From the NCBI GenBank assembly GCA_021795795.1, contig JAJYPA010000073.1, forward strand, positions 1 to 23,878: a stretch of DNA of 23,878 nucleotides. The letters run 5' to 3'. Both the position numbers and the translations under genes were made by a program. Below are positions 6,568 through 23,208 of the stretch, piece after piece. The stretch's first letter is position 1, and every line of letters begins with the position of its first letter. The notes below the pieces were generated by a model. It made no database searches, had not been told where the DNA came from, and saw only the letters and a list, made by a program, of their open reading frames with translations. The DNA comes from Pseudomonadota bacterium (GTDB taxonomy: Bacteria; Pseudomonadota; Gammaproteobacteria; Halothiobacillales; Halothiobacillaceae).

Positions 6568-6597
6568 CACTAACCGACGATGCCAAATTATTTTTTT
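6568..6597 (-). promoter_or_regulatory. Element-wide bipartite motif, copy 1
   Basis: On the minus strand an A-tract, TAATTTGGCA, five bases (TCGTC) and GGTTAGTG lie 45 nt before the 25-residue ORF. A terminator hairpin lies directly upstream (6613-6638). The bases downstream (GAGAGCGCGGAATT) resemble those after copy 6. Confidence 0.75.
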
Positions 6598-6612
6598 GAG
6601 AACGGAAGGCAC

Positions 6613-6638
6613 AAAAAAGCCGCCATTTCTGACGGCTT
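6613..6638 (-). terminator. Rho-independent terminator of the lipoprotein operon
   Basis: Read on the minus strand, GCCGTC, a six-base loop, GGCGGC and a run of six T form a standard terminator. It lies about 125 bases past the lipoprotein gene and just before motif copy 1. Confidence 0.8.
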
Positions 6639-6762
6639 CGCTGGCGTGTCCCTATATAAGGAGGCAATACATGACACTGCTGCGGGTGTTAGTTTCGGCC
6701 ATGATTGACCGCCTTGGGTAACACCGCCTGCTGGCTCCCAAGGTCGATATGCAATTCTTTTC

Positions 6763-7236
6763 TTAATGCAGAGGCACCGCCCGGGAATGCAGAGGCACCG
6801 CCCGGGTCCGTCCGCGCGGGCCGCGCAGAATGGCAACCTGCTCACCAGGAACCAGGTGCGGGTTTCCGACCTCTGGCACCCCAAGCAACTGACCATTGGT
6901 AAGTTTTACCATCACGTCCGTGCCTGCAACGGCATCGGGCGTCAACGCATGCCCTAAAATTGCCCCGCCAACCACGCCACCGATAGCGGCTAGTGGTGTC
7001 GATGAGATAGCGAAACCGACCAGGCCACCACCTACGCCCGCGATTAGACTGTTAGCAGACTGCCCGCCTGTGTCCCTGATTCGGATTGGCTGGCACCGGA
7101 TAACCGTGCCTTCGGCCATTTCTCGCGCCTGTAGGTTCTCGGTACTGGCATACCGCTGGTAGGTCAATGGCTGCATAGCGCACCCGGCCATTGCAACCAC
7201 CGCGATAGAGATAACGGCGATTTTCAGGGCTTTCAT
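6763..7236 (-). CDS. Glycine-zipper outer-membrane lipoprotein
   Basis: This 157-residue protein has a lipoprotein signal (VVAMAGC, lipidated Cys19) and a glycine-zipper double span (GVGGGLVGFAISS and GGVVGGAILGHAL, about 68-98), as in SlyB/Pcp-type lipoproteins. The C-terminal part resembles the short beta segment of that group (VKLTNGQL, PGEQVAIL). GGAGG precedes the ATG, and the start overlaps the previous gene's stop (ATGA). The last residues, RAVPLHSRAVPLH, come from a perfect 20/21-base tandem duplication (6766-6807) that has probably lengthened the tail. It would sit in the outer membrane, possibly supporting envelope changes with the secreted protein upstream in the operon. Confidence 0.8.
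   Translation of the reverse strand: MKALKIAVISIAVVAMAGCAMQPLTYQRYASTENLQAREMAEGTVIRCQPIRIRDTGGQSANSLIAGVGGGLVGFAISSTPLAAIGGVVGGAILGHALTPDAVAGTDVMVKLTNGQLLGVPEVGNPHLVPGEQVAILRGPRGRTRAVPLHSRAVPLH
6766..6807 (-). repeat. 21-bp tandem duplication
   Basis: Two adjacent 21-base units, differing only at the last base, duplicate seven codons (RAVPLHS) at the 3' end of the lipoprotein gene. The duplication stays in frame and places a second copy right at the stop codon. Confidence 0.85.
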
Positions 7237-7421
7237 GCGGCCTCCGCTGCTTCGGCAAGCATCGCATCGGCTTCGTCCATGAGTGCATGCCCCGCTTCTT
7301 GCATCGCCGTGATTGCCGCTTCATCGCAGAAATCTTCATCTTCAAGCGCAAAAGATCGGCTTAAAATTGCGCATCCGGCTTCAAAAAGTATGTCGCTTAC
7401 TTCTTCTTTCCAGTTTTTCAT
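7233..7421 (-). CDS. Small acidic alanine-rich protein
   Basis: A 62-residue acidic protein with repeated Ala/Glu/Asp helices (AITAMQEAGHALMDEADAMLAEAAEAA) and two cysteines. GGAGG lies about ten bases before the ATG. Its ATG overlaps the stop of the secreted-protein gene and its stop overlaps the start of the lipoprotein gene, so the three are translationally coupled. It has no signal peptide. Function unknown. Confidence 0.65.
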   Translation of the reverse strand: MKNWKEEVSDILFEAGCAILSRSFALEDEDFCDEAAITAMQEAGHALMDEADAMLAEAAEAA

Positions 7422-7762
7422 TTTTGCAGTACCTCCACGTCATGAAAGCCGTCGAAAAGCTGCTTACGCCCATGGTTAAGTAGAGCCTCGCAATTCAGCG
7501 CCAGCCCTGGGCCTGCTTTCATATCAACAACGCAAACATCACGCCCCTGATATTCGTGCGGCAGCATCAAAAAAGCCGCATCTTTGAGCGTCATCGTTTT
7601 CCGGCTCCAATTCGCTGTTGAGTTAATGACCAGATTTGTAGGCTTCGGGAAAATGAGAGGTGTGCTGTCGCTCATCGTTACCGTGCCCGCATGCGCCGCC
7701 AGCGCCGCACCCGCCAGAATCAAACCACTCACCAATGCTGCTGTACTTTGTTTCGCTTTCAT
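7418..7762 (-). CDS. Secreted protein of unknown function
   Basis: This 114-residue protein has a clear Sec signal peptide (MKAKQSTAALVSGLILAGAALAAHA, cleaved before GTVT). The mature part is about 89 residues with two cysteines (C76, C91) that could form a disulfide. GAGGTG lies before the ATG, and motif copy 2 lies 28 nt upstream. It heads the three-gene operon with the acidic protein and the lipoprotein. No family recognised; probably periplasmic. Confidence 0.7.
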   Translation of the reverse strand: MKAKQSTAALVSGLILAGAALAAHAGTVTMSDSTPLIFPKPTNLVINSTANWSRKTMTLKDAAFLMLPHEYQGRDVCVVDMKAGPGLALNCEALLNHGRKQLFDGFHDVEVLQK

Positions 7763-7790
7763 TTCACACCTCGTCGTTTAGTAGAAGATT

Positions 7791-7819
7791 CACTAACCAC
7801 CCATGCCAAATTATTTTTT
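7791..7819 (-). promoter_or_regulatory. Element-wide bipartite motif, copy 2
   Basis: A-tract, TAATTTGGCA, five bases (TGGGT), GGTTAGTG, 28 nt before the secreted-protein start. It begins six bases after the topoisomerase stop with no terminator between. Confidence 0.75.
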
Positions 7820-7824
7820 GGTGC

Positions 7825-9819
7825 TCATTTCTTGCTCCATTTTTTGCCAAGCGCCGTGCCCGCTTCATCGGGCCACCATGCGCTGCAGCATTTTTGGCAC
7901 CTAAAGTAAGGCTTGCCGTTCTTGGTAGAAAATTTGCCGGTGGGTGCCTTGCACTTTTTACAGACGGGGCCTTCGGCTTCTGGGGTGGCTTTCGGACGAT
8001 CCGCAAAGGGCAATCCGGGCTTGCCATCAGCGTCTTGCAGTAATCCGTGGCTACCACGATTTGAACATGCCCAATAGAATGAACCGAGCTTGTTTTTGCT
8101 CTCCAGGCGCTTGACGCGGCCATCGCACCCTGCGACCGGGCAGGGTTCCGTTACGGGAACCGCGCCGGCAGGCAAGGCTGCAAGCCCTGCCTGGAGCGAA
8201 TCCCACACCTTTTGCATGGTGACGCGGGGCTGTGCCTGTCCTTGGGTGATGGCGTCTAGGTCGTCTTCTATTTCCCTTGTCCAGTCCAGATCCGCGAAGG
8301 AAAAGCGGCCTGCCAAGGCTGCAATTACGGATTCGCCAAGGGGGGTGGGATATAAAGGCGGCTTGCCGCCTTTCTGTTCCATATATGCCCGTGCGAAAAG
8401 GACCTTGATGATGGATGCATACGTGCTAGGGCGGCCTACACCATGGTCTTCCAAGGCTTTGATCAGGGTGGCTTCGGTGTACCGGCTCGGGGCCTTTGTG
8501 GACTTCGCCAGCACCTCGCCGCGCGTCGGGGTTTCGGTGGCGCCTTTGAGTAACACGGGCACGGGGTTCGCCGCTTCGGCGGGCTGGTCGTCGTCAGAGC
8601 TCTCCTGATACAGCTTTTTCCAGCCGGGATCCGTCAGGACACTGCCGGTGGCCTTGAAGATTACAGGGCGGCCTTGAAACTCGTCGCCGCCCAGGGTGCA
8701 ACTGGTTTGCTGGTACCCTGCATCCGGCATTTGAGAGGCCAGTGCCCTTTTCAGAATCAACTGATAAAGCGCCTTCTGGGTTGCATCCTGCCCGGCATCT
8801 TCCTGCATGGGATCCGTTGGACGGATCGCTTCATGCGCTTCTTGGGCACCTTCTTTCAGCTTCCAGCGCCGGGGCGTTTCGACGATCGGCAACCCAGAGG
8901 ATTGCAGCGCGTTACGCAGTAACGTCTCGCCCTCTTGGCTCAGATTCGGTGAATCCGTCCGGTGGTACGTAATGGCGCCGGCCTCGAACAGCGCCTGGGC
9001 GGCTTTCATCACTTGCTCGGTGCCAATTTTAAGGGCGCGAGATCCGTCTTGCTGTAGGGTTGATGTGGTAAACGGCGCTGGCGGGCCTTTCTTGGTGGGC
9101 TTGCTCTCCGCTGATATGACGGCCAGGTTCATGCCGGGCAGGGCATATACCAAGGTGTCTGCAAAGGCTTTGTCCTGGAAATATTCGCCCTCTTTCGTGT
9201 CATCCTGCCATGCGGCCCGCCATCCGCCCGGGAAGTGGGCCACGATCTGGAAATACGCGGTGGGCTTGAAGGCGCGGATCGCCTGTTCTCTTTCCACAAT
9301 GATGCGGAGCGCTGGAGTCTGGACGCGGCCGGCGGACGCCTTTGATCCCACAACATTAGATAAGGGGCCACTGCATTCCCAACCAACCATGCGGTCCAAT
9401 CCGCGCCTGACTTCCTGCGCTGCCACAAGCCGCATATCCATGCCGCGCGGGTTCGCTACGGCCTTTTTGACGGCGCTTTCGGTCACTTCCTGATAAGTGA
9501 CACGCTTCGCGTTCGCTGGGCGGATTTCCAAGACTCGGCAAAGATGCCATGCAATCGCTTCCCCTTCCCTATCGGGATCCGTAGCCAGGTAAACGGCATC
9601 CGCCTTGCTGGCTGCGGCTTTCAGTCCGGCCACCGTATCCTTTTTATCGTCGCTAACCACATAATTCATCTTAAAATCTGGCGGTCTAACGTGCGATTTG
9701 TCGCCGGTTTTTTTCAGATCACGGACGTGACCAAGGCTGGCTTTTACTTGCCAGTCGCTACCTAAAAAATGCTGGATATGCTTCGCTTTTGTCGGGCTTT
9801 CTACAATCAAGAGTTTCAT
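7825..9819 (-). CDS. topA: DNA topoisomerase I (type IA)
   Basis: A 664-residue type IA topoisomerase, which relaxes negative supercoils by cutting one strand through a 5'-phosphotyrosine. The N-terminal TOPRIM domain has LLIVESPTKAK (Glu7) and ATDPDREGE (D81, D83, E87). The active-site tyrosine is Y285 in AITYHRTDS; a histidine replaces the usual methionine. Two C-terminal zinc-ribbon-like parts (CPVAGC...C at about 570-600; CKKCK...CQKC at about 622-648) bind DNA. Such enzymes recur on conjugative plasmids (for example TraE of RP4), where they help process transferred or replicated DNA. It starts three bases after the transglycosylase stop, and its ribosome site lies inside that gene's end. 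It looks intact and shorter than the chromosomal TopA of enterics (about 865). Confidence 0.93.
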   Translation of the reverse strand: MKLLIVESPTKAKHIQHFLGSDWQVKASLGHVRDLKKTGDKSHVRPPDFKMNYVVSDDKKDTVAGLKAAASKADAVYLATDPDREGEAIAWHLCRVLEIRPANAKRVTYQEVTESAVKKAVANPRGMDMRLVAAQEVRRGLDRMVGWECSGPLSNVVGSKASAGRVQTPALRIIVEREQAIRAFKPTAYFQIVAHFPGGWRAAWQDDTKEGEYFQDKAFADTLVYALPGMNLAVISAESKPTKKGPPAPFTTSTLQQDGSRALKIGTEQVMKAAQALFEAGAITYHRTDSPNLSQEGETLLRNALQSSGLPIVETPRRWKLKEGAQEAHEAIRPTDPMQEDAGQDATQKALYQLILKRALASQMPDAGYQQTSCTLGGDEFQGRPVIFKATGSVLTDPGWKKLYQESSDDDQPAEAANPVPVLLKGATETPTRGEVLAKSTKAPSRYTEATLIKALEDHGVGRPSTYASIIKVLFARAYMEQKGGKPPLYPTPLGESVIAALAGRFSFADLDWTREIEDDLDAITQGQAQPRVTMQKVWDSLQAGLAALPAGAVPVTEPCPVAGCDGRVKRLESKNKLGSFYWACSNRGSHGLLQDADGKPGLPFADRPKATPEAEGPVCKKCKAPTGKFSTKNGKPYFRCQKCCSAWWPDEAGTALGKKWSKK

Positions 9820-9822
9820 TTT

Positions 9823-10302: not shown

Positions 10303-10315
10303 GGCAATCTCCTTT

Positions 10316-10519
10316 TCAGTGCTGTTTTACGCGCTGTGCTCGTGTAAACGAGTCCGCAATCTCGTCAATCTGAGCAAGAATGTCTGTCATGTAATCGAGA
10401 TCAAGATGCAATGCAGCAATCCCGGCTGCCTGATTTTTTACGATCAGTTCCGCGTCTTGTGTGCATTGCGAAGAAAGCTGAGAAAGCAGGCTATAAAGTG
10501 ACGTTTGTGTGTGTGTCAT
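10316..10519 (-). CDS. Small helical protein, translationally coupled
   Basis: A 67-residue, largely helical protein (LYSLLSQLSSQ, LDYMTDILAQIDEIADSF) with one cysteine and no membrane segment. It has no ribosome site of its own; its ATG overlaps the TGA of the 30-residue ORF (ATGA), so its translation should depend on that small gene. It lies 13 bases before the transglycosylase. Function unknown. Confidence 0.6.
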   Translation of the reverse strand: MTHTQTSLYSLLSQLSSQCTQDAELIVKNQAAGIAALHLDLDYMTDILAQIDEIADSFTRAQRVKQH

Positions 10520-10608
10520 AGGACTGCCGCCATGAGTGCAACAACCGACACAACATAATTTGCTATTTGATGAAACTGCTTTGCTTTCTGCATGATGAGA
10601 TTTTTCAT
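10516..10608 (-). CDS. 30-residue membrane micro-protein
   Basis: The short frame encodes MKNLIMQKAKQFHQIANYVV and SVVALMAAVL. The N-terminus is basic and the C-terminal third hydrophobic. GAGGG lies before the ATG and motif copy 3 lies 24 nt upstream. It ends in an ATGA overlap with the next gene. Either a small membrane protein or a leader peptide that couples translation. Confidence 0.5.
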   Translation of the reverse strand: MKNLIMQKAKQFHQIANYVVSVVALMAAVL

Positions 10609-10632: not shown

Positions 10633-10663
10633 TACTTACCAGCACTGCCAAATTTATTTTTTT
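10633..10663 (-). promoter_or_regulatory. Element-wide bipartite motif, copy 3
   Basis: A-tract, TAAATTTGGCA (one extra A), five bases (GTGCT), GGTAAGTA, 24 nt before the 30-residue ORF. A terminator hairpin lies just upstream (10680-10706). Confidence 0.7.
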
Positions 10664-11216: not shown

Positions 11217-11246
11217 CACTAACCAGCATTGCCAAATTATTTTTTT
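11217..11246 (-). promoter_or_regulatory. Element-wide bipartite motif, copy 4
   Basis: A-tract, TAATTTGGCA, five bases (ATGCT), GGTTAGTG, 35 nt before the Gln/Glu-rich gene. Its A-tract overlaps the relaxase TAA stop codon, so the unit starts exactly at the end of the transfer operon. Confidence 0.75.
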
Positions 11247-14200
11247 ACATGCCCATTTCCTCCCTTTTTTCCATAGCCTGCCGCCGCTCGTCTTCAATCG
11301 CCGGGTTGCCCTGCTGCTGTCCTGGCTTTTGCTCTTGCCCATGGGCCTGATCCGGCTCGATTTTGAAGCCCTGGGCGCGGTCTTTCTCCGGCTCCGTTGC
11401 CCACTTTCCGGGCTCGATCGGTGACAAATCGCGCTGCGCTTGCTGTAGATCAAAACGGTCCAGGTGCTCGTCTGTAACATGCTCCACCGCGTTACGATTT
11501 ACTTTCGATTCTGACCACTTTTCTGCAAGTTTATCCGGGTTGTCCGTATATACCTCAAGCCTTTCTTGTGCGTTTTCATTTTCCCTCGTCTGCAGTCTTG
11601 AGAGCGTTACATAACCCTGCTCTGCGCTAGAGAGCGATGATTCTGAATCAATCGCGGCAATAACTTTTCCTTCACCTTTTACCGTTGCGCCCTGGACTGC
11701 ATGCACCGTGCCTGAATAGCCATAATCGGCCCTTACACCGTCGTCGCTGTTGATAATGACCTCTTTTTGTGCCCCTTGTTTGTCAACCGTCTGCACCACT
11801 AGGCTGCCGTCTTCGGTTATTTCCTTGACCCGTCCGGTGCTGCCGTTATTCACCTTCACCTCATGCCCGTCTTTATCCTCTAGCCGCTGATTTTCCCTGA
11901 AACGAATTTTGTCACCTTTGGAAAATTCCTTGTTATCTTCTGTATAAGCGGTGTACTTTTCCGCGCTCGTTTTTGATAAATCCCATTCGATCTGCTCGCC
12001 TTTTTTGTTCTCCAAGGTTACGGTATTCCTCTTTACATCTGTTTCCGTTACCGTATATTCCTCAAATTTGTTAATGACATGCTCCTGTTCTTTGGGTATT
12101 TCTGGCCGCTTAACTTCCTGATACACCGCACTTTTTGCACTTATCGCGTCGTGATTTTGCTTTAGCTGTGCAATGTATTCTTTCATCGCCTTTTCATAAT
12201 CTTCTTTTTGTGCTGATTTCGTATCCTGAAACTCCTTTTGACGCTCTGGGTCTTTGAATTTTGCGCCTTTTTCATAGTCGCGCCGGAAAATTACTTTGTC
12301 GCCAGCCTCTAAACTTTGGGCATGTTTCTGCTGCTCGCGCGATAAGTCTTTCTTTTCCAGTACGCGGGTTTGTATGCCGCTTTCTAGCTCGCCGCGTTCC
12401 TTGAGATTTTCACGGATATGCTGATTAACCGCCTGCCGCATTTTGTTGGTGTCCAGCACGACCACGCTGTTATCACGGTCTTTCGCTTGCGTATAAGCTG
12501 CTGCGGCGGCTTTGGCAATTTCCTCAATTTTATCCTGGCCTTTCTCTGTTTTTACTTCTCGCATATACTCTTTTGCCTCTTTCGCGGCTTCTTTAAGCCA
12601 TGCGCCATCAATAGCGGCGAATTTCTCCACCGTTTTTTTGAGTTTGTCATCATTCTGGCGCCTTATCTCTGATATAACCGCCGTGCGCGATTCCCCTTTC
12701 TCCTGCGCAAGTTTGAAAGGGGCGCCGGATTCTACGCTCTGTAGCTGCCGCCAGTCGCCGAGAGGGGTGCCACGGGCGCCGGTTTTTTCGATACGATCCA
12801 GCAATTGTGCCATGTCTTTACTGCTGATCATGCCAGCTTCGTCAACGATAAATAGCGTTTTTTCGGTGCCCGGGGCGCCGCTGGCCTGCCACTTCGCTAT
12901 CGTATCGGCCTGGATGCCTGCGGCGCTTAGCTCGCTCGCGGCTTTGGAGGTCGGAGCAAGGCCAATGACTTCAAAACCTTTAGCTTTTACAGCGTCATTC
13001 ACGGCCTCGATCGCCGTGGTTTTCCCGGCCCCGGCATAACCCTGCCAGCACGTCAAACGGTCCTCACTTGTGAGGGCCAGCATTACCGCGTCGCGCTGGC
13101 CGGGGGAAAGGTTAAAGCCCTTTTCTTGCTCAAATTTATCGATAAATTTGCTGGCGTCCGGCTCTGTATAGATGGCCGTGACCGCGCCTTTGCCAGCCTG
13201 GACGTGCTGGATGATCTTTTCATCCCTGGCGATTTGCTCGGTCGTCGTCCATTCTCCTGCACGAATGGCCGGAACTACGCCATTTTTTTCCAGATTTGCT
13301 GTATTTTTGAGTGCGTCTGTAACGTCCTGTTCCACAACGGCTTTCCCCATTCCAGCGGTCAGGGATTCGGTGATTAACCGCTGCTCATCTACAACGCTCT
13401 CGCGCTCGCTGAGGTGCCGCATTGCCGATTTTACGGCCTCAAGCGCGTTTTTTTGGCGGTCCTCTTGGGTGTAGATGCGGTCATTTTCTTTTGACTGCTG
13501 GATAGTCTGCCGGATCTCATCCAGGGCGCCGATCCGCTCCGCGCGGTCTTCCCAACTGCCTGCCTGGGCGGCGTGAGACTGGTTTAATTTCCCCTCGCGC
13601 GTGTTGAGCGTTGCCGCCTTACGTTCTGCGTAACTCGCTGTTTCTATGCTTTTCCCTTTCTTGACAAGCTCCGCTTCGATCTGCTTTGTGCGCTGCGAAA
13701 ATTCCTCGCGGGTCGATTTTGATATGCCAGATATTTCAAAACTCTTGCCGTTTTTTTCGGTTTCGTACCCGATTTTCTGCATTTCGCGGGCCAGTTGCGC
13801 GTCTGCCCAGGCACCTAAATCCTCCCTATAACCTTTGGGCATGTCCCAACTTGTGGCCCTCCACTCTCCATCTGGCCGCTGTGCAACATTCAAAAACTCA
13901 ATGTGAACATGGGTTTGCGGGTCTGCCTGGCCGTTGACCGGGCGGCTTGTGCTATGGCGGGCAATCGCCATGACCGCCCGCGTGCCGTCTTCGTATACCA
14001 TGCGCTTTTGCTGACCATCCACCATTTGACGGGTGCCCACATGCTGCTGCTGGATGCGATCTGCAAGCTGCCGTGCTACTCGGTCCATCGCCTCATGTAT
14101 GCGAGTATCACCGCCGATCTCTGCAAGGATCGATACACTTTTCGGGGCTGACCAAACGAAATCTTCACCAGCGCGCCTTTCTACCGTATTGTCGGGATTG

Positions 14201-14424
14201 TCTGTCCCTGGCAATTTTTCGCCGGTCGGAAGTTCGCCTTTTTTGAGGGCATCAAAAATTTCTGCATCAACTTTGCCATTTAATCCAATGGCTTGCGCCC
14301 CCTCACCATACCACTCAAACGGGGCCTTTTCATTTTCGGAAAAGTACGCCGCACCCGCGCTGTCGCGCTCTTCTGCCAGGTCTTTCCCTGAATACCTGAT
14401 GCCGTCTGATGATTTACTGAGCAT
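11245..14424 (-). CDS. MobF-family conjugative relaxase-helicase (TrwC/TraI-like)
   Basis: This 1059-residue protein nicks oriT and unwinds the plasmid strand for transfer. The N-terminal relaxase domain (about 1-290) has the candidate nucleophile Y27 (AAYFSE) and the three-histidine metal site H157, H172, H174 (HSTSRPVNG...THVH). The C-terminal SF1 helicase has Walker A GYAGAGKTT (462-470), VDEAGM (about 528-532) and LGDWRQLQSVESG. The last part ends in YVTLSRLQ (the normal YVAISRAR-like motif, slightly diverged) and a Gln-rich tail. It overlaps the coupling-protein gene by 11 bases. The trwA-trwB-trwC order and spacing match R388. A basic insertion-rich middle (about 600-900) is lysine/glutamate heavy. 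Confidence 0.93.
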   Translation of the reverse strand: MLSKSSDGIRYSGKDLAEERDSAGAAYFSENEKAPFEWYGEGAQAIGLNGKVDAEIFDALKKGELPTGEKLPGTDNPDNTVERRAGEDFVWSAPKSVSILAEIGGDTRIHEAMDRVARQLADRIQQQHVGTRQMVDGQQKRMVYEDGTRAVMAIARHSTSRPVNGQADPQTHVHIEFLNVAQRPDGEWRATSWDMPKGYREDLGAWADAQLAREMQKIGYETEKNGKSFEISGISKSTREEFSQRTKQIEAELVKKGKSIETASYAERKAATLNTREGKLNQSHAAQAGSWEDRAERIGALDEIRQTIQQSKENDRIYTQEDRQKNALEAVKSAMRHLSERESVVDEQRLITESLTAGMGKAVVEQDVTDALKNTANLEKNGVVPAIRAGEWTTTEQIARDEKIIQHVQAGKGAVTAIYTEPDASKFIDKFEQEKGFNLSPGQRDAVMLALTSEDRLTCWQGYAGAGKTTAIEAVNDAVKAKGFEVIGLAPTSKAASELSAAGIQADTIAKWQASGAPGTEKTLFIVDEAGMISSKDMAQLLDRIEKTGARGTPLGDWRQLQSVESGAPFKLAQEKGESRTAVISEIRRQNDDKLKKTVEKFAAIDGAWLKEAAKEAKEYMREVKTEKGQDKIEEIAKAAAAAYTQAKDRDNSVVVLDTNKMRQAVNQHIRENLKERGELESGIQTRVLEKKDLSREQQKHAQSLEAGDKVIFRRDYEKGAKFKDPERQKEFQDTKSAQKEDYEKAMKEYIAQLKQNHDAISAKSAVYQEVKRPEIPKEQEHVINKFEEYTVTETDVKRNTVTLENKKGEQIEWDLSKTSAEKYTAYTEDNKEFSKGDKIRFRENQRLEDKDGHEVKVNNGSTGRVKEITEDGSLVVQTVDKQGAQKEVIINSDDGVRADYGYSGTVHAVQGATVKGEGKVIAAIDSESSLSSAEQGYVTLSRLQTRENENAQERLEVYTDNPDKLAEKWSESKVNRNAVEHVTDEHLDRFDLQQAQRDLSPIEPGKWATEPEKDRAQGFKIEPDQAHGQEQKPGQQQGNPAIEDERRQAMEKREEMGM

Positions 14425-16051
14425 TTTGCACCCCCTTTATCGCCGCTGGCACATAATTCGGTGCAATATCAGGCCTGTCCGTGCGCCGCAGTTTAATGCG
14501 CGTCACAACCACGCCGCCACTTGAGGGATACTTTAGAAAACCCTCAAAATTCGGTAAGCCCTGGATCTGGCTTGGTAAAATAGCGGGTTCGGTGGCGTGC
14601 TGCTGGCTGGTTCCGGTGCTGCCGCCCGATCCGCTCGCGCTTTCGTTTTCAATTTTCCTGATGATGTGACGATCACCGATCGCCTTACTTGCCCACCCCG
14701 CTGCCTCTGGCTCCGGGAGCCTGAGGATCATCTGCGTTTGCGGTAATCCCAATAAAGCATCTGCGCCATCCCTACCGTAAGTTTCTCTCAATTGTGAAAT
14801 TGACTGGACACCCACTAGGGTTGCTAGGCCAAACTGCCTGCATTCTGCCATCGCCATGGATATTTTCGGCATTTTTTGCAAGCTAGGCAGTTCATCAACA
14901 ATCATCCAAACCCTACGGTCCATGTTCGGTTTCAAAAGCATCACGCCGGTCACGGCAATATCAATCCATAAGCTCAAAAGAGGCCGCAAAACCGCGCGCT
15001 GATTTGCTCTCGAAGTGAGGAAAAGCCAGCTATTATTATCCTCATCTGCAACCCATTCTTTAATAGAAAAACGGTTTGCGCCTCCCTTCAAATAACGTAA
15101 ACAGGTGGTAGGCGCGGTCATACTTGCGCGGCTATTTGCGAATGTCTGGCCGCTACCAATCAAGCCCGCCATGCCTTTTGATTTAACGATGTTCATAAGC
15201 TCATCGCTATCCGCACCCATTATCATTCTTGTGAGCTCTTCAATAGAATCCGTGTGCTCTAAAAGAGAGACTAATAGAGCCCTTGCGCTCTGCGGGAAAA
15301 AAGGCTGTTTTTCATCATCTGGAATGATTGCCGCCGCAATTTGCTCATAGTCTGCGCGGCAATCCGCATCGGACCACGGCACCCAATCTGCAGACCTGGC
15401 ATCCAGGGGGTTTAGAATGGTATCGCCGTCTTTATAAAACTTGGCTAGAAACTCGCCTGTACTATCATAAACAATAGCCCGTTGCCCGCGTTTCCGTATT
15501 GTTTCCAGCATGTCCGATATAGCTGTTGATTTACCTGTACCGGGTCCACCAAGCATAAGAAAATGGCTCGCTTCGATCTGTTTTGGTATGGTGACACCGC
15601 CGATCTTAATAGCAAGATCATCTGATTTCTTCGATGATTTATCTTGCATGATATCCCGGTTATCTGCGATGACAGTACCCCGCAAAATCTCCCCGCCACC
15701 CTCGATCTCATCCGGGGCTTTTGTCTCTGGCTTTAACAGCCTGAACCAAATAATAGTCAAGTTTACCACGGCGCTAATCAAGAGCCACGGGCCTGCTGAC
15801 ATAACCGCAAAAAAGGCCGAGGCAATGAAAATAGCAAAAACTAGCATAGCTGTTTTTATATGCAGTTTGTGTTTACGATGGCCTACGATGACCCATGCAG
15901 CCACCGAAAAACCACCATACATGATGTACGTCATGAATGAAACCATAAGGGCCATTTCTGCATCTGATCCGCCGCCAAGGCTGGTAATGCCGCCCATTAG
16001 CAAGCCCATGGCTAGAAAAATGTATGCCAAGTATCCAAGTACCTTTGCCAT
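14414..16051 (-). CDS. Type IV coupling protein (TrwB/TraD-like)
   Basis: A 545-residue coupling ATPase of the VirD4/TrwB family, which delivers the relaxase-DNA complex to the secretion channel. The N-terminus has hydrophobic segments (about 3-23, 33-58, 65-100) that anchor it in the inner membrane. The RecA-like domain has Walker A GGPGTGKST (about 167-175) and Walker B RVWMIVDELPSL (about 370-382), plus the QFGLATLVGVQSISQL motif typical of the family. The ATG at 16051 with GAGGTG upstream is preferred over the longer frame from 16063. It starts one base after the relaxosome gene and overlaps the relaxase. R388 TrwB (507 residues) has the same arrangement. Confidence 0.93.
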   Translation of the reverse strand: MAKVLGYLAYIFLAMGLLMGGITSLGGGSDAEMALMVSFMTYIMYGGFSVAAWVIVGHRKHKLHIKTAMLVFAIFIASAFFAVMSAGPWLLISAVVNLTIIWFRLLKPETKAPDEIEGGGEILRGTVIADNRDIMQDKSSKKSDDLAIKIGGVTIPKQIEASHFLMLGGPGTGKSTAISDMLETIRKRGQRAIVYDSTGEFLAKFYKDGDTILNPLDARSADWVPWSDADCRADYEQIAAAIIPDDEKQPFFPQSARALLVSLLEHTDSIEELTRMIMGADSDELMNIVKSKGMAGLIGSGQTFANSRASMTAPTTCLRYLKGGANRFSIKEWVADEDNNSWLFLTSRANQRAVLRPLLSLWIDIAVTGVMLLKPNMDRRVWMIVDELPSLQKMPKISMAMAECRQFGLATLVGVQSISQLRETYGRDGADALLGLPQTQMILRLPEPEAAGWASKAIGDRHIIRKIENESASGSGGSTGTSQQHATEPAILPSQIQGLPNFEGFLKYPSSGGVVVTRIKLRRTDRPDIAPNYVPAAIKGVQNAQ

Positions 16052-16052
16052 T

Positions 16053-16499
16053 TTACACCTCACCTTTTTCGCTGTTGCGAATTGAAGTTAAAACCGCTTT
16101 TGCTGCCTTTTCCTGCACCGCCGTTTTATCTACTACAACGCCTGCTTTCTGCATGGAATCGTAAGATAAAACCCCTAGAAACCGATACCTAGTAAAGGCA
16201 AGTATCTCCATGATCGCCGCCTCTATCGCCGGGTTTGTCGCCGCCGATTGTGCGGGATGCTGCGTTTGCATAGGCGCTGGCCCTGCCGGTTTAATGTCCT
16301 TGATGGTGTCAATCTTGGCGTTTAGTTCCTGCATCTGCCTCTGAAAAAACGCAAAATTGAGGCCATCGCGCCCACGTATCAATAATGCTCTGACATACTC
16401 TGAGCGCGACACTTTCAAGGCTTTTGCTTCTGCATCCAAAAGCTCCGCCTGCTGCTTTGAAAGCGTTACCGAGAACCTTGCTATATCTTTTGTTTCCAT
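16053..16499 (-). CDS. TrwA-like ribbon-helix-helix relaxosome protein
   Basis: This 148-residue protein has an N-terminal ribbon-helix-helix (DIARFSVTLSKQQAELLDAEAKALKVSRSEYVRALL) followed by a Pro/Gln/Ala-rich linker (about 73-88) and a helical C-terminal half. TrwA of R388 has an RHH domain that binds oriT and represses its operon, and a C-terminal part that makes a tetramer and stimulates TrwB. The gene abuts the coupling-protein gene (one base apart) and lies directly beside the oriT-like hairpin. Weak ribosome site GAGGG. The role is strongly supported by position; the family assignment is by pattern. Confidence 0.8.
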   Translation of the reverse strand: METKDIARFSVTLSKQQAELLDAEAKALKVSRSEYVRALLIRGRDGLNFAFFQRQMQELNAKIDTIKDIKPAGPAPMQTQHPAQSAATNPAIEAAIMEILAFTRYRFLGVLSYDSMQKAGVVVDKTAVQEKAAKAVLTSIRNSEKGEV

Positions 16500-17225: not shown

Positions 17226-17258
17226 CACTTACCGCCGCTGCCAAATTATTTATTTTTT
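17226..17258 (-). promoter_or_regulatory. Element-wide bipartite motif, copy 5
   Basis: A-tract interrupted by T, TAATTTGGCA, five bases (GCGGC), GGTAAGTG, 31 nt before the 54-residue gene. Its A-tract overlaps the stop codon of the membrane protein gene upstream (17250), so there is no room for a terminator. Confidence 0.75.
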
Positions 17259-17673: not shown

Positions 17674-17958
17674 CTACTGCATCGCCCGTACTTTTTTGCG
17701 TAGATCGCTTTTATCTACTCCAAAAAGATGCGCAACGTGTTCGATGGTCCTGCAATGGACCATCAACGAAAAAGGATAACGGCGCGATGGCCAGCGAATA
17801 TACTCACAACATTCCTGCCATTCGTTATCGTCCGGCTCCCACCGCCGCGCACTGTCAAAAGTACCGCTCGGGTGTGAATCCCGGGATTTACGATCCAGGT
17901 ATTCTTGCGCCGCTTTTTCAAGATCTAAGTCATACTGCTCGACAGTCTTAATTCCCAT
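17674..17958 (-). CDS. Small soluble hypothetical protein
   Basis: A 94-residue, charged protein whose C-terminal part (TIEHVAHLFGVDKSDLRKKV) resembles a helix-turn-helix, as in homeodomain-like or sigma-region-4 readers. It starts MGIKTVEQYDLDLEKA. GAGGTG lies before ATG and motif copy 6 lies 42 nt upstream. It may be a small DNA-binding regulator; this rests only on the helix pattern. Confidence 0.6.
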   Translation of the reverse strand: MGIKTVEQYDLDLEKAAQEYLDRKSRDSHPSGTFDSARRWEPDDNEWQECCEYIRWPSRRYPFSLMVHCRTIEHVAHLFGVDKSDLRKKVRAMQ

Positions 17959-18000: not shown

Positions 18001-18030
18001 CTTCTACCCGCACTGCCAAATTATTTTTTT
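18001..18030 (-). promoter_or_regulatory. Element-wide bipartite motif, copy 6
   Basis: A-tract, TAATTTGGCA, five bases (GTGCG), GGTAGAAG (most diverged right half), 42 nt before the 94-residue gene. The bases that follow (GAGGGCGCGGAATT) repeat those after copy 1. A terminator hairpin precedes it (18048-18073). Confidence 0.7.
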
Positions 18031-18096: not shown

Positions 18097-20382
18097 TTAC
18101 CAGTGGTATTTAACTGCAGCCACGAATTCCATAGATGCGGCGCCACCACCGAAAAGCTGGCGGGCCGAGACATTCGCAGACAGGCCCTTGCTGTAGTGCG
18201 TGTGGCTGATCACATCCAGCCGCACTTCTGCCATGCCCTGCAAATGCGGCGCTGCAAGTCCCTGCACCTGCCCTGCCACTTGGCCTGAGCTGATGGACGC
18301 GCTGGGGTTTGGGCCGACGCTCTCCACTGCTCCCAAACGGATCTGCGGGAAAATGGTGTGGTTCCCGCTTTGGCTGCGGTAGTTGAATTTTTTGCCTACC
18401 AAGATGGCCGGTGAAAGGTACAACTGGCCGTCACTCTGCCCGCTTACCTGCACATCCAAGGGACCGCCACCATGGGTGCTAAACCCGTTGGTCCAGGACT
18501 GGTTATAACCAATCGAGAGACGCGGGCTAACGATGACGCCGTCATCCAGCGTCTTCCAGTAGCTTGCGCGGATCTCTCCACCCATGAAGCCACCCCAAAA
18601 GTATGCCGCCTGGGGGAGGCCAAGCGCGGTGGATTCAATGGTGTTGGTGGACAGTCCACCGCCCAGGGTGCCGGTAATTTTCCAGGTGCGGGCCACCGTG
18701 GGATAGTAGGTGCCATAGAGCCAGAGACCATAATCAGAAGCCTTAGTGAAGTCGCTGGCGCCCGTTCCCAATCCCGCTTGCCCTGCGCTGAAAGCCAAGC
18801 CAGCTACGTCGCGGCCAACGCTGAACCCATAGCCGCTGATCAGGCCATAATTCATCCCGGAATAGCCGCTCTGGCTGGAAAAGCCGCCCAAGGTTTTCAA
18901 CCACAAGCCCCTGGGTCCACCGCCAACAACGCCAGTGCTGACAAGGGCGCTGGTAGTATTCTGAACATCAGCCTGAGTTGCCTGCGAAGAATCGGAAAGG
19001 ATCGGCTTTGCCTCTTCTGTCGGCGTCACAACATGCACCGGGATGACCTGGGCCGGTGCCGGTGCGGGTGTCGATTTTGCAGGCGCGGGCGTCGATGGCG
19101 GGTTCAAAACAACCTGCACATTGTCTGCATGCACTTCAAGCTCTGGATCATACCCGTCAATCGTCGGGCTTTTCGCGCCATTGTAGACATAATAGCCACC
19201 ACTTGGCGCGAAAGTGTTACTTACGCCACTGCCACATTGCAAAAGCGTATAAGTGTCACCGGCTTTATAAGCCCCTTTTTCACCGTCGAAAATTACCGTC
19301 CCGCCGCGCACTGTGTAACCGCTTTCACTGTATATGTCTGCATACGCCATGCCACCAGCGCCCAGGTAGTCACTTGCGCTGTTTTGAAAGACTAGCGTGC
19401 CGCCAGTCATGCGAAAACCAGGCCCACTTGTTGCGCCGTTTCCGGTATTCAAATCAATGCCATATTGATCGGTCTGCGGAGCATCCACGGTCATCTGCCC
19501 GCCCTGTAACTCTAAGATCGTATCACCGCCGTTGTTGCTACCAAAAACAACATTAGCCGCATCGAGTTGCGTGTAATCCGCCTCAAGAGTTGCGTTATTG
19601 AAAGTAAGATTTACATTACCAGATGCATTAAAATCGGCGCCGGGGGCGTCGAGTATGCCGGATATTGAGACATCGAGAGGATTCGCGCCGGAATTTTCAA
19701 CGCCTGCGAAACTGGAAGCATAGCCGCCGATTTTTACCGTACTGCTGGCCGTGCTGCCAGCCACTTGTGACAAGTCGCCATCCAGCGTAAGCCCGCCCTG
19801 GTCGCCGCTGCCGATACTCACATTAGAGTCATAAACGGTCATCTCGCTGGCATTTAGCTGCTGTAAGGTCTGCGTATCGCCAGTACCTAGCGTAGCATCA
19901 CCAAAATCGATTGTGCCGGGGCCACTTAAAGTCAAATCGCTTGCCCCAAGGCTTTGATTACCAGCCAGCTCCACACTATATGCAGAACGGTCGGTATCTA
20001 CAGTGAAATCACCAGTCCCAGTCATACCAGAGCCGGAGATTAAAAGCTGTGATGACGGGGCAGAATTGCCCAGGTAGATACCTGCACCCCCACCAGCCGC
20101 GACATTAACCGCACCCAGGCCAATCGCGCCGCCTGTTAGTGAAGTCGGATAAGTCGGCGCGCATGGGGCAGAGCCGCAATATTGCGTATTGGACATGATC
20201 AAAGAGCCTTCGCTGCCCGAAAAATCGAACTGCGTGTAAGCATTACCGGTCGCATCTTTATATTGATAGGCTTCGCGCGTGGTAACGCTGTCGGTATTAG
20301 TACCGGCCATCGCCACGGCTGGCATAATCGCCAGGGCAACCGCCACGGCCACGGCCTTGATTTTCGTCTGCTGCTTTTTCAT
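18097..20382 (-). CDS. Type Va autotransporter (outer membrane)
   Basis: This 761-residue protein has a Sec signal peptide (cleaved near residue 26, AMA before G), a passenger of about 460 residues rich in Gly, Ser, Thr and Asn with short repeats of beta-helix type, a Pro/Ala/Thr linker (about 428-446), and a C-terminal beta-barrel (about 490-761). The barrel ends KYHW with an aromatic last residue, as needed for BAM recognition. It would be anchored in the outer membrane with its passenger displayed outside; no protease or esterase motif is obvious, so adhesion is the likeliest role. The ATG at 20382 (GAGGTG upstream) is preferred to the frame from 20583. It follows motif copy 7. It is unusual cargo for a small mobilizable element. 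Confidence 0.88.
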   Translation of the reverse strand: MKKQQTKIKAVAVAVALAIMPAVAMAGTNTDSVTTREAYQYKDATGNAYTQFDFSGSEGSLIMSNTQYCGSAPCAPTYPTSLTGGAIGLGAVNVAAGGGAGIYLGNSAPSSQLLISGSGMTGTGDFTVDTDRSAYSVELAGNQSLGASDLTLSGPGTIDFGDATLGTGDTQTLQQLNASEMTVYDSNVSIGSGDQGGLTLDGDLSQVAGSTASSTVKIGGYASSFAGVENSGANPLDVSISGILDAPGADFNASGNVNLTFNNATLEADYTQLDAANVVFGSNNGGDTILELQGGQMTVDAPQTDQYGIDLNTGNGATSGPGFRMTGGTLVFQNSASDYLGAGGMAYADIYSESGYTVRGGTVIFDGEKGAYKAGDTYTLLQCGSGVSNTFAPSGGYYVYNGAKSPTIDGYDPELEVHADNVQVVLNPPSTPAPAKSTPAPAPAQVIPVHVVTPTEEAKPILSDSSQATQADVQNTTSALVSTGVVGGGPRGLWLKTLGGFSSQSGYSGMNYGLISGYGFSVGRDVAGLAFSAGQAGLGTGASDFTKASDYGLWLYGTYYPTVARTWKITGTLGGGLSTNTIESTALGLPQAAYFWGGFMGGEIRASYWKTLDDGVIVSPRLSIGYNQSWTNGFSTHGGGPLDVQVSGQSDGQLYLSPAILVGKKFNYRSQSGNHTIFPQIRLGAVESVGPNPSASISSGQVAGQVQGLAAPHLQGMAEVRLDVISHTHYSKGLSANVSARQLFGGGAASMEFVAAVKYHW

Positions 20383-20408
20383 CTGAACACCTCTGATTTG
20401 TGTGGATT

Positions 20409-20437
20409 CACAAACCACCAGTGCCAAATTATTTTTT
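20409..20437 (-). promoter_or_regulatory. Element-wide bipartite motif, copy 7
   Basis: A-tract, TAATTTGGCA, five bases (CTGGT), GGTTTGTG, 26 nt before the autotransporter start. The gap of only 26 bases leaves room for little more than a ribosome site, so the motif must overlap the core promoter if transcription starts here. Confidence 0.75.
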
Positions 20438-20639
20438 ACGCGAGAGGAACGGCGAGTAACCCGATCTGGTACGTCAATGCAGATTAGGGCGGGGAGAAGT
20501 GCGGGGGCATCGGTTAAATGCGTTCTGGGGCAACTATGGTGCCCTGGCGGGCATCCGGCACCGCTACCGCCCGCCGCGCTCATAATTTTTCGGGTTTGCG
20601 GTCATTTTTATGAAACGCGGTCTATGGCCGGATCACGTG

Positions 20640-20823
20640 GTAAGTTAACCGCCGAAGGCGGTTTTACTAATAAAGCGGCAAGTCCCGCCCGGAAGGCGGG
20701 GCGCTAGCCGCCTTCTAATAATCCTGAATAAAACTGCTTGCGTCGGGCCGGTGGGGAATGCGTCGGGCCGGTGGGGAACGCTACCGGGCCGGTGGGGAAC
20801 GCTACCGGGCCGATAGGGAACGC
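20640..20823 (+). other. oriV: Candidate replication origin (oriV) with iterons
   Basis: Four tandem units of 20-21 bp lie at 20740-20759, 20760-20779, 20780-20800 and 20801-20821, with core CGGGCCGGTGGGGAA (the last unit has CGATAGGGAA). They sit directly downstream of the repC-like gene. Next to them are two GC-rich stem-loops, ACCGCC/GGCGGT (about 20648-20662) and CCCGCC/GGCGGG (20684-20700). Iterons plus stem-loops next to an IncQ-type repA/repC pair fit an IncQ-like origin, where RepC binds iterons and single-strand start sites form hairpins. The remaining 20450-20640 shows nothing else recognisable. Confidence 0.65.
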
Positions 20824-21567
20824 CTACCCATTTTTGATAACGCGATCGCCATCGATGATTATGCCGATTTTGTTTAAGTCTTCTGAGTCTGCCTTTAGTA
20901 AAAATTTCGCTTTTCGCTGTACTTGGGGGGGTAGAGGCTGCCTTGAGACCGTTTGAATGAGTCCGTCAATCGTCCAGCCGCCCCGAGGCTGAGTCTTGTG
21001 TGATAGACAATGTCGAGCGATTGCTTGACTAATCCCATGTTCCAGCCGGGCAATTGGCGCAGGGTCGTAATATAGCGGTAAGTCTATCTCCAAAAGAGCC
21101 ACTAAGAGCTTTCCAAGCCTAACCCGCCATAAGTGGCGGATCCCGCCAGTTAGCGGATCCGGCCGAGTAGCCGGGGATTCGATCACGTCATCAATCAGAT
21201 GCCCTAAAGCCCGAAAGTTTTTTGTTTCTATTTCCACAGTTGCCGCCATGATTTCTCGCAATAGTGACCACATACGCGAATGGGAGTAGCCGCTATCAGA
21301 AAGATTTCTCCTAACTTTGGCGGGGTCTACCAGTAACTCGACCCCGCCATCCTCGACCATCCGCCGTTTTTCAGCGACCGAGAGCATGGTTTCTGTGATA
21401 TCTGCATGTCGCTGGCCTAGCCTGCCTGTCACTCTGCATCTTCCCCATGCCGTTGTGTTCCAGACCCCATTTTGATAAACGGGCCTCTGGGTAGGCTGCC
21501 AGAGGAGAATCCGCACTTGTATAGCTGTGGATGTCGGTACTATTTGCTTACCAGATTTCCTCATCAT
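20824..21567 (-). CDS. repC: RepC-like replication initiator
   Basis: This 247-residue protein is most likely the iteron-binding initiator. In the middle, RHLWRVRLGKLLVALL, LPLYYDPAPIARL and GGWTIDGLIQTV match the order of features in IncQ RepC proteins, which have two winged-helix units. The ATG at 21567 is chosen because GGGAGG lies seven bases before it; the longer frame from 21708 would run deep into repA. Its start overlaps the repA stop by 20 bases, so the two are co-translated, as in RSF1010. It ends two bases before the iterons. Length fits the family (RSF1010 RepC is 283). Similarity is moderate. Confidence 0.7.
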   Translation of the reverse strand: MMRKSGKQIVPTSTAIQVRILLWQPTQRPVYQNGVWNTTAWGRCRVTGRLGQRHADITETMLSVAEKRRMVEDGGVELLVDPAKVRRNLSDSGYSHSRMWSLLREIMAATVEIETKNFRALGHLIDDVIESPATRPDPLTGGIRHLWRVRLGKLLVALLEIDLPLYYDPAPIARLEHGISQAIARHCLSHKTQPRGGWTIDGLIQTVSRQPLPPQVQRKAKFLLKADSEDLNKIGIIIDGDRVIKNG

Positions 21568-22519
21568 CGTTTCCTCCCTTTCCAGTTGCTTTCGCATAAG
21601 CATTACCTTTTTTATCCGCTTTACTTTCTGCCCGTTCTTCCCCTTTTTCATAAATCTGTGTCGGCAAAAGGATCCCTCCCTCGCCGCGTCTGAACCATTG
21701 TCCTGCAACTGGCTCGCCGTAATTTTGCTTGCTGATGCCGTATTTCACATACTTGAAGGCATCTTCTTTCTTAACAGAATTTCCGAAACCATCCATATAA
21801 TCGCTGCAATTCTTTTCGCTCATTTTGTTGATATAGCACACAAAACGCGCATTATCTACAAGCGCCGAAGCACCGCGACTGGCCGCCTGATTCTCCTTGA
21901 GATCATCGAGTTGCGACATTTTGTTAGCGTGATGTGCAATAAGAACAGCCGCGCCTGTTTCTTTTGCAATTTTTTCAAGCCGCGACACAACCCCCGCCAT
22001 CTCCCCATTTTTGTTTTCGTCTGCTGTGTGAATGCGCGACAACGTATCTATAATAATGAGACGTACTCCGTAGCTCATTTTTATGATTATATCTAAATGT
22101 TTATCATTTATAATATCAATCATTTCGCCGCGCATATCAACAATCGACGTGTTAATAATTGCCTTTTCCCGCGCTTCTTTATGCAGTAAAGTGCCCATGG
22201 AAATGATCCGGTTTTGCACAATTTCGGTGGGGTCTTCTAAGTTGATATAAAGCACTTCACCGCTTTTATCTACTTGAAAGCCAGCAAGATTTTCACCGCT
22301 CGCGATTGACAAAGCCGCTTGCAAGAGCCAGAAACTTTTACCAGACGCGCCGGGTGCAATTATCTCACCTACGGTCCCGACCAAAAGCCCCGGCAATATA
22401 AAATCAAGTTTATTTGGTTCGGCTTCAAAATCGATTTTAATGCGAAGGGCTTCACGCGCTGCCCGGGATTTTTCTTCAAGGTCAAGACCTGGAATGTAGT
22501 CTACATTTGACTTAGCCAT
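21548..22519 (-). CDS. repA: IncQ-type RepA replicative helicase
   Basis: This 323-residue RecA-like hexameric helicase has Walker A APGASGKS (55-62), Walker B VRLIIIDTLSRIH (about 150-162), and AHHANK plus ASRGASALVDNARF, all strongly like RSF1010 RepA. The C-terminal YGISKQNYG...QWFRRGEGGILLP segment also matches. It unwinds from the oriV to allow strand-displacement synthesis. The ATG at 22519 is preferred to a GTG at 22525. The start is four bases past the regulator stop. It has a C-terminal extension of about 35 charged, Gly/Lys-rich residues. Motif copy 8 lies 31 nt upstream, inside the regulator gene. Confidence 0.9.
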   Translation of the reverse strand: MAKSNVDYIPGLDLEEKSRAAREALRIKIDFEAEPNKLDFILPGLLVGTVGEIIAPGASGKSFWLLQAALSIASGENLAGFQVDKSGEVLYINLEDPTEIVQNRIISMGTLLHKEAREKAIINTSIVDMRGEMIDIINDKHLDIIIKMSYGVRLIIIDTLSRIHTADENKNGEMAGVVSRLEKIAKETGAAVLIAHHANKMSQLDDLKENQAASRGASALVDNARFVCYINKMSEKNCSDYMDGFGNSVKKEDAFKYVKYGISKQNYGEPVAGQWFRRGEGGILLPTQIYEKGEERAESKADKKGNAYAKATGKGGNDDEEIW

Positions 22520-22521
22520 GG

Positions 22522-23208
22522 TCACACCCCCAATCCCAGCAAATCGCCATTACTAACCTGAGATGCCAAATTATTTGCTTTGGCTTTTCTGGCTTGGCTT
22601 TTAGTGGGGCGTCCGGCTCTGGATTTTTGGTTCCTTGCATTTTTGAGCAGAATGCCAGTCAAATCATTCTCTTTGCTGTCAAAATAGACGGCATGATTCT
22701 GGAAAAAGGCGTTTTGTATATCATCAGAATCGAAAGCTGCTTGTGCGATTTGATAGAGATTATCGGCTTGTTGGTCGCTGTAACCTAACAAATCACTGAT
22801 TTTTGCAAAAGAGTAATGGTATTTAATCCTTAAAAGAATTAAAGCCGCTTGCAGCTCTGTTAGCTTTCTTAAATGCAAATTAAATTCTTCTTTATCTGCT
22901 TTTGCTTGCTCTGCTTTTTTTGTATATTCAGCGTCTTCTTTCGCATTCGCATAAGCACTTAGATAGTCACTGATATAATCTACATTTGCATCAATACCGC
23001 GATTCTCTAAAATATGCGATATTTCTTCACAAAGCACATTCCACGCTTCGTTTACTTCAACATACTCAAAGCCTTGTGCGCTTTCGTGGTCGGCTTGATA
23101 TTCAGCGTTTTCAGTGTGATGGCTCTCTTTTTCTAAGAATTTCTGACGCAAAAAAGAGCGAGCCTGTGATTTTTCTTCGGGTTCGTATATGGCTTGAGCT
23201 ACAGACAT
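22522..23208 (-). CDS. Regulator with sigma-region-4-like HTH and AT-hook-like tail
   Basis: This 228-residue protein has an acidic, mostly helical N-terminal half (about 1-110). A central LTELQAALILLRIKYHYSFA followed by KISDLLGYSDQQADNLYQIA (about 115-158) closely resembles region 4 of sigma factors or LuxR/sigma-like HTHs. The C-terminal RAGRPTKSQARKAKA resembles an AT-hook. No sigma region 2 is seen, so it is unlikely to be a full sigma factor. GAGGTG lies before the ATG; a palindrome (23231-23244) lies just upstream. It leads the replication unit. The element-wide motif lies in its own last codons, so it may control its own operon and others. Function inferred. Confidence 0.65.
   Translation of the reverse strand: MSVAQAIYEPEEKSQARSFLRQKFLEKESHHTENAEYQADHESAQGFEYVEVNEAWNVLCEEISHILENRGIDANVDYISDYLSAYANAKEDAEYTKKAEQAKADKEEFNLHLRKLTELQAALILLRIKYHYSFAKISDLLGYSDQQADNLYQIAQAAFDSDDIQNAFFQNHAVYFDSKENDLTGILLKNARNQKSRAGRPTKSQARKAKANNLASQVSNGDLLGLGV
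22551..22576 (-). promoter_or_regulatory. Element-wide bipartite motif, copy 8 (in coding sequence)
   Basis: TAATTTGGCA, five bases (TCTCA), GGTTAGTA, 31 nt before repA. Here it lies within the end of the regulator gene, encoding NNLASQVS, and the A-tract is shortened to CAAA. It would give repA/repC its own promoter inside the operon. Confidence 0.7.

What the first reader, a model, noticed from the sequence alone, without database searches (positions are those of the whole stretch)
6568..22576. Eight-copy bipartite motif heads nearly every backbone unit
Read directly: copies at 6568, 7791, 10633, 11217, 17226, 18001, 20409 and 22551, all on the minus strand and each 24-45 nt before a start codon. 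The common form is an A-tract, TAATTTGGCA, exactly five variable bases, then GGTWAGTG. Only the second half varies much, and copy 3 has one extra A (TAAATTTGGCA). The short distance to the ribosome site means that if transcription starts here, the motif overlaps the core promoter. It matches neither the sigma-70 -10/-35 pair nor the sigma-54 pair. Inferred: an element-wide promoter/operator coordinating transfer, replication and envelope genes.
Basis: partly seen in the sequence, partly recalled or inferred. Interest (0 to 1): 0.82.

Follow-up and report, generated by a model that had tools for sequence, protein, structure and literature searches.

The report
Mobile element's private promoter motif
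A mobile DNA element from an acid-loving bacterial lineage, and its cousins in Acidithiobacillus ferrianus, carry the same unusual short DNA signal in front of many of their genes, probably a private promoter switched on by a sigma-like protein that the element itself makes.

Summary
Eight copies lie at the stated places, all on the minus strand, against 0.05 expected in shuffles. The motif is not private to this window: a syntenic relative in Acidithiobacillus ferrianus (relaxase 43% identical) carries about ten copies and a second element in that genome about eight, same orientation, just upstream of genes. The shared form is AATTTGGCA-N7-[A/T]TAG; the second half differs between the window (GG-TWAGTG) and A. 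ferrianus (NN-ATAGRTG). Of 369 genomes of the class, only A. ferrianus has more than two matches.

The spacing fits no known promoter pair, yet the distance to the ribosome site leaves room for little but a core promoter. Sigma-70 signals near the copies do not clearly exceed shuffles.

The best candidate reader is the element's 228-residue protein: all 23 family members match the sigma-70/ECF model weakly over region 4 and its predicted fold resembles sigma region 4. Region 2 is not detected. Its gene lacks an upstream copy but has a sigma-70-like promoter, as does its A. ferrianus orthologue. No transcript data exist.

The parts
6568..6590 (-). motif copy 1, before a short ORF and the genes down to the AlpA-like gene
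   Evidence: perfect match; a terminator-like hairpin lies just upstream (6636-6622)
7791..7813 (-). motif copy 2, before 7418-7762 / 7233-7421 / 6763-7236 (lipoprotein-like)
   Evidence: perfect match; A. ferrianus orthologues of 7418-7762 (53% and 49% identical) also have the motif
10633..10655 (-). motif copy 3, TAAATTTGGCA form
   Evidence: 2 mismatches; a T-run lies 31 nt upstream
11217..11239 (-). motif copy 4, directly after the relaxase stop codon
   Evidence: perfect match
17226..17248 (-). motif copy 5; may head the unit leading to the trwA/trwB/trwC-like genes (unit extent inferred)
   Evidence: perfect match
18001..18023 (-). motif copy 6, before 17674-17958
   Evidence: 3 mismatches, all in the second half; terminator-like hairpin just upstream (18073-18053)
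20409..20431 (-). motif copy 7, before the large envelope-type protein gene (listed as 18097-20583; the ATG after the motif gives 761 codons)
   Evidence: 1 mismatch; orthologues in both A. ferrianus elements also have the motif
22551..22573 (-). motif copy 8, inside the 3' end of the 228-residue ORF, before the repA-like AAA gene
   Evidence: 1 mismatch
22522..23208 (-). 228-residue sigma-region-4-like protein, candidate reader of the motif
23555..23583 (-). sigma-70-like promoter TTGACA-17-GAGAAT in the long leader of the 228-residue gene
   Evidence: a similar site TTGACT-17-TATGAT with a conserved -35 block lies before the A. ferrianus orthologue
11245..14424 (-). TrwC/MobF relaxase with helicase
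14414..16063 (-). TrwB-type coupling protein
16053..16499 (-). ribbon-helix-helix protein, trwA-like; rival reader
5888..6094 (-). AlpA-like helix-turn-helix protein; rival reader; an A. ferrianus relative is itself directly preceded by the motif
194..1303 (+). tyrosine integrase next to tRNA-Arg, marking the element's left end

Best explanation
The motif is the core promoter of a family of Acidithiobacillus-type integrative mobilisable elements. Each copy is a one-way site with a fixed block AATTTGGCA, seven variable bases and a second block around [A/T]TAG, placed so that RNA would start about 20-25 nt after the first block, upstream of the ribosome site. Most likely the host RNA polymerase is brought there by the element's own 228-residue sigma-like protein, whose helix-turn-helix resembles sigma region 4 and would read AATTTGGCA. 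That gene lacks an upstream copy and is instead served by a host sigma-70-type promoter with a long leader, so it would act as the master switch for the rest of the backbone. Shown here: motif, conservation, spacing, sigma-like sequence and fold signals, sigma-70-like promoter before the regulator in two elements. Inferred: that the motif is where transcription starts, that the 228-residue protein binds it, and how promoter opening occurs without a detectable region 2.
For: Motif: 8 copies, one strand; exact AATTTGGCA 12 on + and 0 on - in the syntenic A. ferrianus locus L005, 10 and 0 in the second element's locus L106, shuffle means 0.40 and 0.56 (one of each lies inside a gene, L005 17738 and L106 17651). 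Specificity: 14 matches and 0 for the reversed pattern in A. ferrianus; the other 368 class genomes have at most 2 each; within the family 3 of 29 genomes match, the other two once each. Orthologous genes carry it in both hosts. Geometry: a start was called automatically for 27 of 29 copies; there the gap from AATTTGGCA to the ribosome site is at least 26 nt, median 32. A -35 reading with a 17-nt spacer puts the start less than 3 nt before, or past, the ribosome site in 13 of 27; the -24/-12-like reading does so in 0 of 27. No clear sigma-70 signal near the 29 copies (mean best 6.0 versus 5.4 in shuffles, sd 2.1), but one before the regulator gene in both elements (4 of 100 and 0 of 100 shuffles reach it), with a 25-nt block 88% identical. 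Reader: 23 of 23 members match sigma70-ECF TIGR02937 at E<=0.1, best 1.2e-6, below its curated cut-off in the two shown; best PDB sequence match is an RpoE (E 0.0049); the VIA-align rows are dominated by sigma region 4. The segment SDxQAxN of the helix-turn-helix is kept between the window and A. ferrianus proteins, 36% identical, as AATTTGGCA is. Relaxase and 228-type hits share longest-contig lengths 18623, 18810 and 16007, which suggests linkage.
Confidence: 0.5

Rival explanations
1. The motif is the binding site of an element-wide regulator (trwA-like ribbon-helix-helix, AlpA-like or 228-residue protein acting as classic repressor or activator) placed over weak host sigma-70 promoters, like KorA/KorB operators of plasmids.
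For: A ribbon-helix-helix relative of the trwA-like protein occurs in the first A. ferrianus element (39% over 61 residues) and AlpA-like relatives in two other A. ferrianus loci; the genes after L005 7383 (trwA-like) and L106 8374 (trwA-like by position, not tested) are preceded by a deviating motif; in 8 of 29 copies the best sigma-70 pair uses the motif's TTGGCA as -35; Foldseek also lists KorA and ArdK for the 228-residue model.
Against: The motif is not a dyad by inspection and points the same way as the gene; sigma-70 scores around the 29 copies do not clearly exceed shuffles; too little room downstream for a separate promoter.
Confidence: 0.22
2. The 228-residue protein is a Q-like antiterminator: it loads at the motif within a host promoter and lets RNA polymerase run through the terminators that separate the units.
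For: PHROG 'anti-termination protein Q-like' matches the A. ferrianus relative (E 0.0034); PF06530 hits 2 of 23 members (best E 0.024); terminator-like hairpins lie just upstream of two window copies.
Against: Sigma-family matches are stronger and cover all members; a Q site sits in a promoter with host elements (recalled), which are not clearly seen; one site before each unit is more than a Q system needs.
Confidence: 0.1
3. The motif works as a post-transcriptional RNA leader element, with real promoters further upstream.
For: It lies close to the ribosome site; four A. ferrianus copies are followed by a GGGGCCACC-GGCCCC hairpin.
Against: 11 of 29 copies have a run of five or more T within 70 nt upstream and others directly follow a stop codon, leaving little room for another promoter before them; no Rfam match in the window apart from tRNA.
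Confidence: 0.06
4. Variant sigma-54 promoter (-24/-12).
For: TTGGCA and the distance between blocks resemble the -24/-12 layout (consensus recalled).
Against: 0 of 29 copies have GC at the -12 position; no enhancer-binding activator was recognised among the 20 window ORFs given to Pfam.
Confidence: 0.04

Closest known systems
Phage-encoded sigma factors with a dedicated promoter set (phage 7-11 gp47; phiEco32 gp36), PMC8948821, passages incl. part of the abstract seen
   Same: A mobile genome encodes a divergent sigma-like protein and a short set of its own promoters (eight in 7-11), which motif searches had missed.
   Different: 7-11 promoters are GTAAtg-16-aCTA and phiEco32's are a single tAATGTAtA; here the blocks are only seven bases apart, and the element is mobilisable rather than a virus.
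Xpf, positive control factor of PBSX (PMC10141391, one table passage seen; NCBIfam PRK06930)
   Same: Sigma-like control factor of a prophage; 7 of 23 members of the 228-type family match PRK06930 at E<=0.1, best 0.00046.
   Different: The table lists sigma2 and sigma4 domains for Xpf; region 2 is not detected here.
[quoted passage not shown]
   Same: Sigma4 and sigma2 can sit on separate proteins. (The table in PMC10141391, lists the domains in the other order.)
   Different: No sigma2 partner was recognised in the element; promoter differs.
Tn916 Orf7, sigma-like regulator of an integrative conjugative element (recalled; one search listed no paper on it that I read)
   Same: Element-encoded sigma-like regulator of transfer genes.
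   Different: No multi-copy element-wide promoter motif known to me; unrelated host.
KorA/KorB regulons of IncP plasmids (recalled)
   Same: Element-wide coordination of replication and transfer genes by a repeated site.
   Different: Those are palindromic repressor sites over sigma-70 promoters.

Membership tests
Sigma-70 family / ECF sigma factor (for the 228-residue protein) | region 4 helix-turn-helix | tested here: inconclusive
Sigma-70 family / ECF sigma factor (for the 228-residue protein) | region 2 (core binding and -10 melting) | tested here: inconclusive
   no region-2 family among the Pfam matches of 23 members at E<=1; N-terminal helices barely tested by fold search
Sigma-70 family / ECF promoter (for the motif) | -35 and -10 blocks 16-18 nt apart | tested here: not met
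   blocks seven bases apart; no TATAAT-like excess 16-18 nt after TTGGCA (2.2 versus 2.3 in shuffles)
Sigma-54 promoter | GG at -24 and GC at -12 | tested here: not met
   GG present, GC in 0 of 29
Two-subunit SigO-RsoA type | separate sigma2 partner encoded nearby | tested here: inconclusive
   no sigma region 2 family among the 20 window ORFs given to Pfam; other small ORFs not scanned
Plasmid Kor-type operator | palindromic site overlapping sigma-70 promoter | tested here: not met
   motif not a dyad by inspection; no clear sigma-70 excess at copies
Integrative mobilisable element (the host element) | integrase, att repeats at a tRNA gene, relaxase and coupling protein | tested here: met
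   tRNA-Arg and 74-nt repeat 55-128 / 23766-23839; integrase, relaxase, TrwB-like protein
Integrative mobilisable element (the host element) | no mating-pair apparatus of its own | tested here: inconclusive
   no type IV secretion channel family among the matches of the 20 ORFs scanned; other ORFs not scanned
Any of the above | transcription starts at the motif | not testable with these tools
   no transcript data held

The most novel reading that the evidence does not exclude
A new promoter class with two blocks about one helical turn apart, served by a family of element-encoded sigma-like proteins that keep only a region-4-like reader and open DNA by an unknown route (a borrowed host sigma or a novel N-terminal domain), with the second block drifting as the protein drifts.
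Probability: 0.3. Interest if true: 0.82.

Novelty: new variant of a known kind. Interest (0 to 1): 0.62.

Why it matters
Element-encoded sigma-like factors with dedicated promoters are known from phages; here a whole mobilisable backbone (replication, transfer, envelope) seems wired to one private promoter type with a geometry that fits no textbook class. It gives a compact, testable case of sigma-promoter co-evolution in acidophiles and a way to find such elements by a 20-nt signature.

Tried and rejected
Sigma-54 and sigma-70 readings: not supported. Pattern scans of IMG/VR gave 3 and 42 stretches with one match each, read as chance; the 3 carry the same sequence around the match; the 42 were not examined. 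No plasmid DNA match; no plasmid or phage protein relative of the 228-type protein; none in viral contigs or, with the first alignment, in genome contigs. The relaxase as a single query found no viral relative; as an alignment it found 5, which show no motif match at 3 mismatches or fewer. Relaxase relatives L004 and L006 lack the motif; L006 has a different seven-copy repeat. The first structure model, from 8 sequences, was poor and not used. A literal search for TAATTTGGCA in papers found two unrelated papers; searches showed no description of this motif or element family in their listings; of PMC10561277 I saw only passages.
Full report
OBSERVATION. The window is 23,878 bases, 51% G+C. A pattern scan with up to three mismatches finds eight copies, all minus strand, at the eight stated coordinates; shuffles average 0.05 and never exceed 1. 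A repeat finder recovered the same eight without the pattern. Start codons follow 24-45 nt after the 23-mer. Some neighbourhoods share more than the motif (D2 and D7, 60-77% identity), but most of the common sequence is the motif itself.

THE ELEMENT. A tRNA-Arg gene stands at 30-106 and its 3' part is repeated at the other end (55-128 and 23766-23839). Pfam finds a tyrosine integrase, a TrwC-type relaxase, a TrwB-type coupling protein, a ribbon-helix-helix protein, a topoisomerase and an AAA/DnaB-like ATPase in the 20 ORFs given to it; no type IV secretion channel family was among the matches. I read this as an integrative mobilisable element. No plasmid record matches its DNA at megablast sensitivity. 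Four relaxase relatives at 85-91% identity are unnamed entries from the sources ena and lgn; the next group, 42-45%, includes Acidithiobacillus ferrianus.

RELATIVES. The best-scoring named relative by identity is locus L005 of A. ferrianus MG, 43%. Without any pattern given, the repeat finder on L005 returned a ten-copy family beginning AATTTGGCA, all on the coding strand. In the window's own form the motif is absent from L005 at three mismatches and appears once at four: the second half differs. Searching the whole A. ferrianus genome for AATTTGGCA-N7-WTAG gave 14 matches and none for the reversed control: eight in this element, four in a second element (L106 region), one in a small contig with a lipoprotein-like remnant and one before an AlpA-like gene. 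A weight-matrix reading adds further copies. In 29 family genomes only two others match, once each; among 369 class genomes 37 match, and apart from A. ferrianus none has more than two, while the reversed control reaches three in single genomes. So dense occurrence belongs to these elements. BLASTP between window and A. ferrianus ORFs with the motif positions shows shared genes led by the motif in both: 7418-7762 (53% and 49% identical) and the large envelope-type protein (62% and 53%). Two more are directly preceded by it in A. ferrianus and lie further down a motif-led unit in the window: the lipoprotein 6763-7236 (64% and 61%) after copy 7791, and the AlpA-like gene (34%) after copy 6568.

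ANATOMY. I aligned 29 copies: 8 window, 11 and 8 in the two A. ferrianus elements, 2 elsewhere. Left out: a tandem partial copy (L106 6994), two AATTTGGCA inside a gene (L005 17738, L106 17651), and the copies that only brought up. The alignment shows AATTTGGCA, seven variable bases with weak preferences, and then [A/T]TAG. Because copies were collected by AATTTGGCA, its perfect conservation is partly built in; variants such as GATTTGGCA exist. The window has GG before TWAGTG and an A-tract upstream; A. ferrianus has neither constantly and prefers ATAGRTG. Starts could be called automatically in 27 of 29: AATTTGGCA to start codon 38-67 nt, to ribosome site at least 26, median 32. If AATTTGGCA were a -35 box with a 17-nt spacer, the start site would fall less than 3 nt before the ribosome site, or past it, in 13 of 27; if WTAG is the melting-side block, in 0 of 27. 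Eleven of 29 copies have a run of five or more T within 70 nt upstream, some follow a stop codon directly, and copy 8 lies inside the previous gene. Of the eight proteins in the close 228-type group, six have N-L-A-x-x-V-S at the end where copy 8 lies, which is what the motif would encode there; this is only suggestive.

WHAT IT IS NOT. Sigma-54: 0 of 29 have GC in the -12 register. Sigma-70: best hexamer pairs around copies do not clearly beat mononucleotide shuffles (6.0 versus 5.4, sd 2.1), and no TATAAT-like excess lies 16-18 nt after TTGGCA. Against this, in 8 of 29 the best pair uses the motif's own TTGGCA as -35, and two of these (window 7804, L005 20682) reach the top 6% of shuffles. 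RNA element: only tRNA matches in Rfam for the window.

HIERARCHY. The 228-type gene has no motif copy upstream of it. Upstream of it lies TTGACA-17-GAGAAT (23583-23555), and upstream of the A. ferrianus orthologue TTGACT-17-TATGAT, about 375 and 344 nt before the start, with a 25-nt block 88% identical covering the -35. Shuffled leaders reach these scores in 4 of 100 and 0 of 100 cases. The general promoter scan itself found no more sites in the region than shuffles (15 versus 16.6), so this rests on conservation. The picture is host sigma-70 making the sigma-like protein, which then drives the backbone.

VERDICT. Observation confirmed; promoter reading likely (about 0.75 as my judgement); sigma-like reader plausible (about 0.5). 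Known in kind from phages (PMC8948821 passages), unusual in geometry and setting.

Noticed in passing
L005:6074, L005:9904, L106:7022, L106:11169: A GGGGCCACC(C)GGCCCC hairpin sits between motif and start codon in four A. ferrianus copies; it might tune translation.
   Followed up: no
L005:7383 and L106:8374: The copy before the trwA-like gene (L106 by position only) deviates in the same way in both A. ferrianus elements (AATG instead of ATAG), perhaps a weaker promoter.
   Followed up: no
L006:2767-6447: A relaxase relative from another metagenome bin has its own seven-copy 26-nt repeat, six copies of it in pairs about 60 nt apart.
   Followed up: partly
window 194-1303; L107:3363-4511: The integrase is 71% identical to one in another A. 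ferrianus island, so that island may be a third relative.
   Followed up: partly
window 7825-9819: The topoisomerase is 84% identical to its A. ferrianus relative while the relaxase is only 43%, suggesting module exchange or strong constraint.
   Followed up: no
window 20744-20826: Four near-tandem copies of a 21-nt unit (D6).
   Followed up: no
window 23208-23583: A leader of roughly 340-375 nt lies between the sigma-70-like site and the start of the 228-type gene in both elements; content unknown.
   Followed up: no
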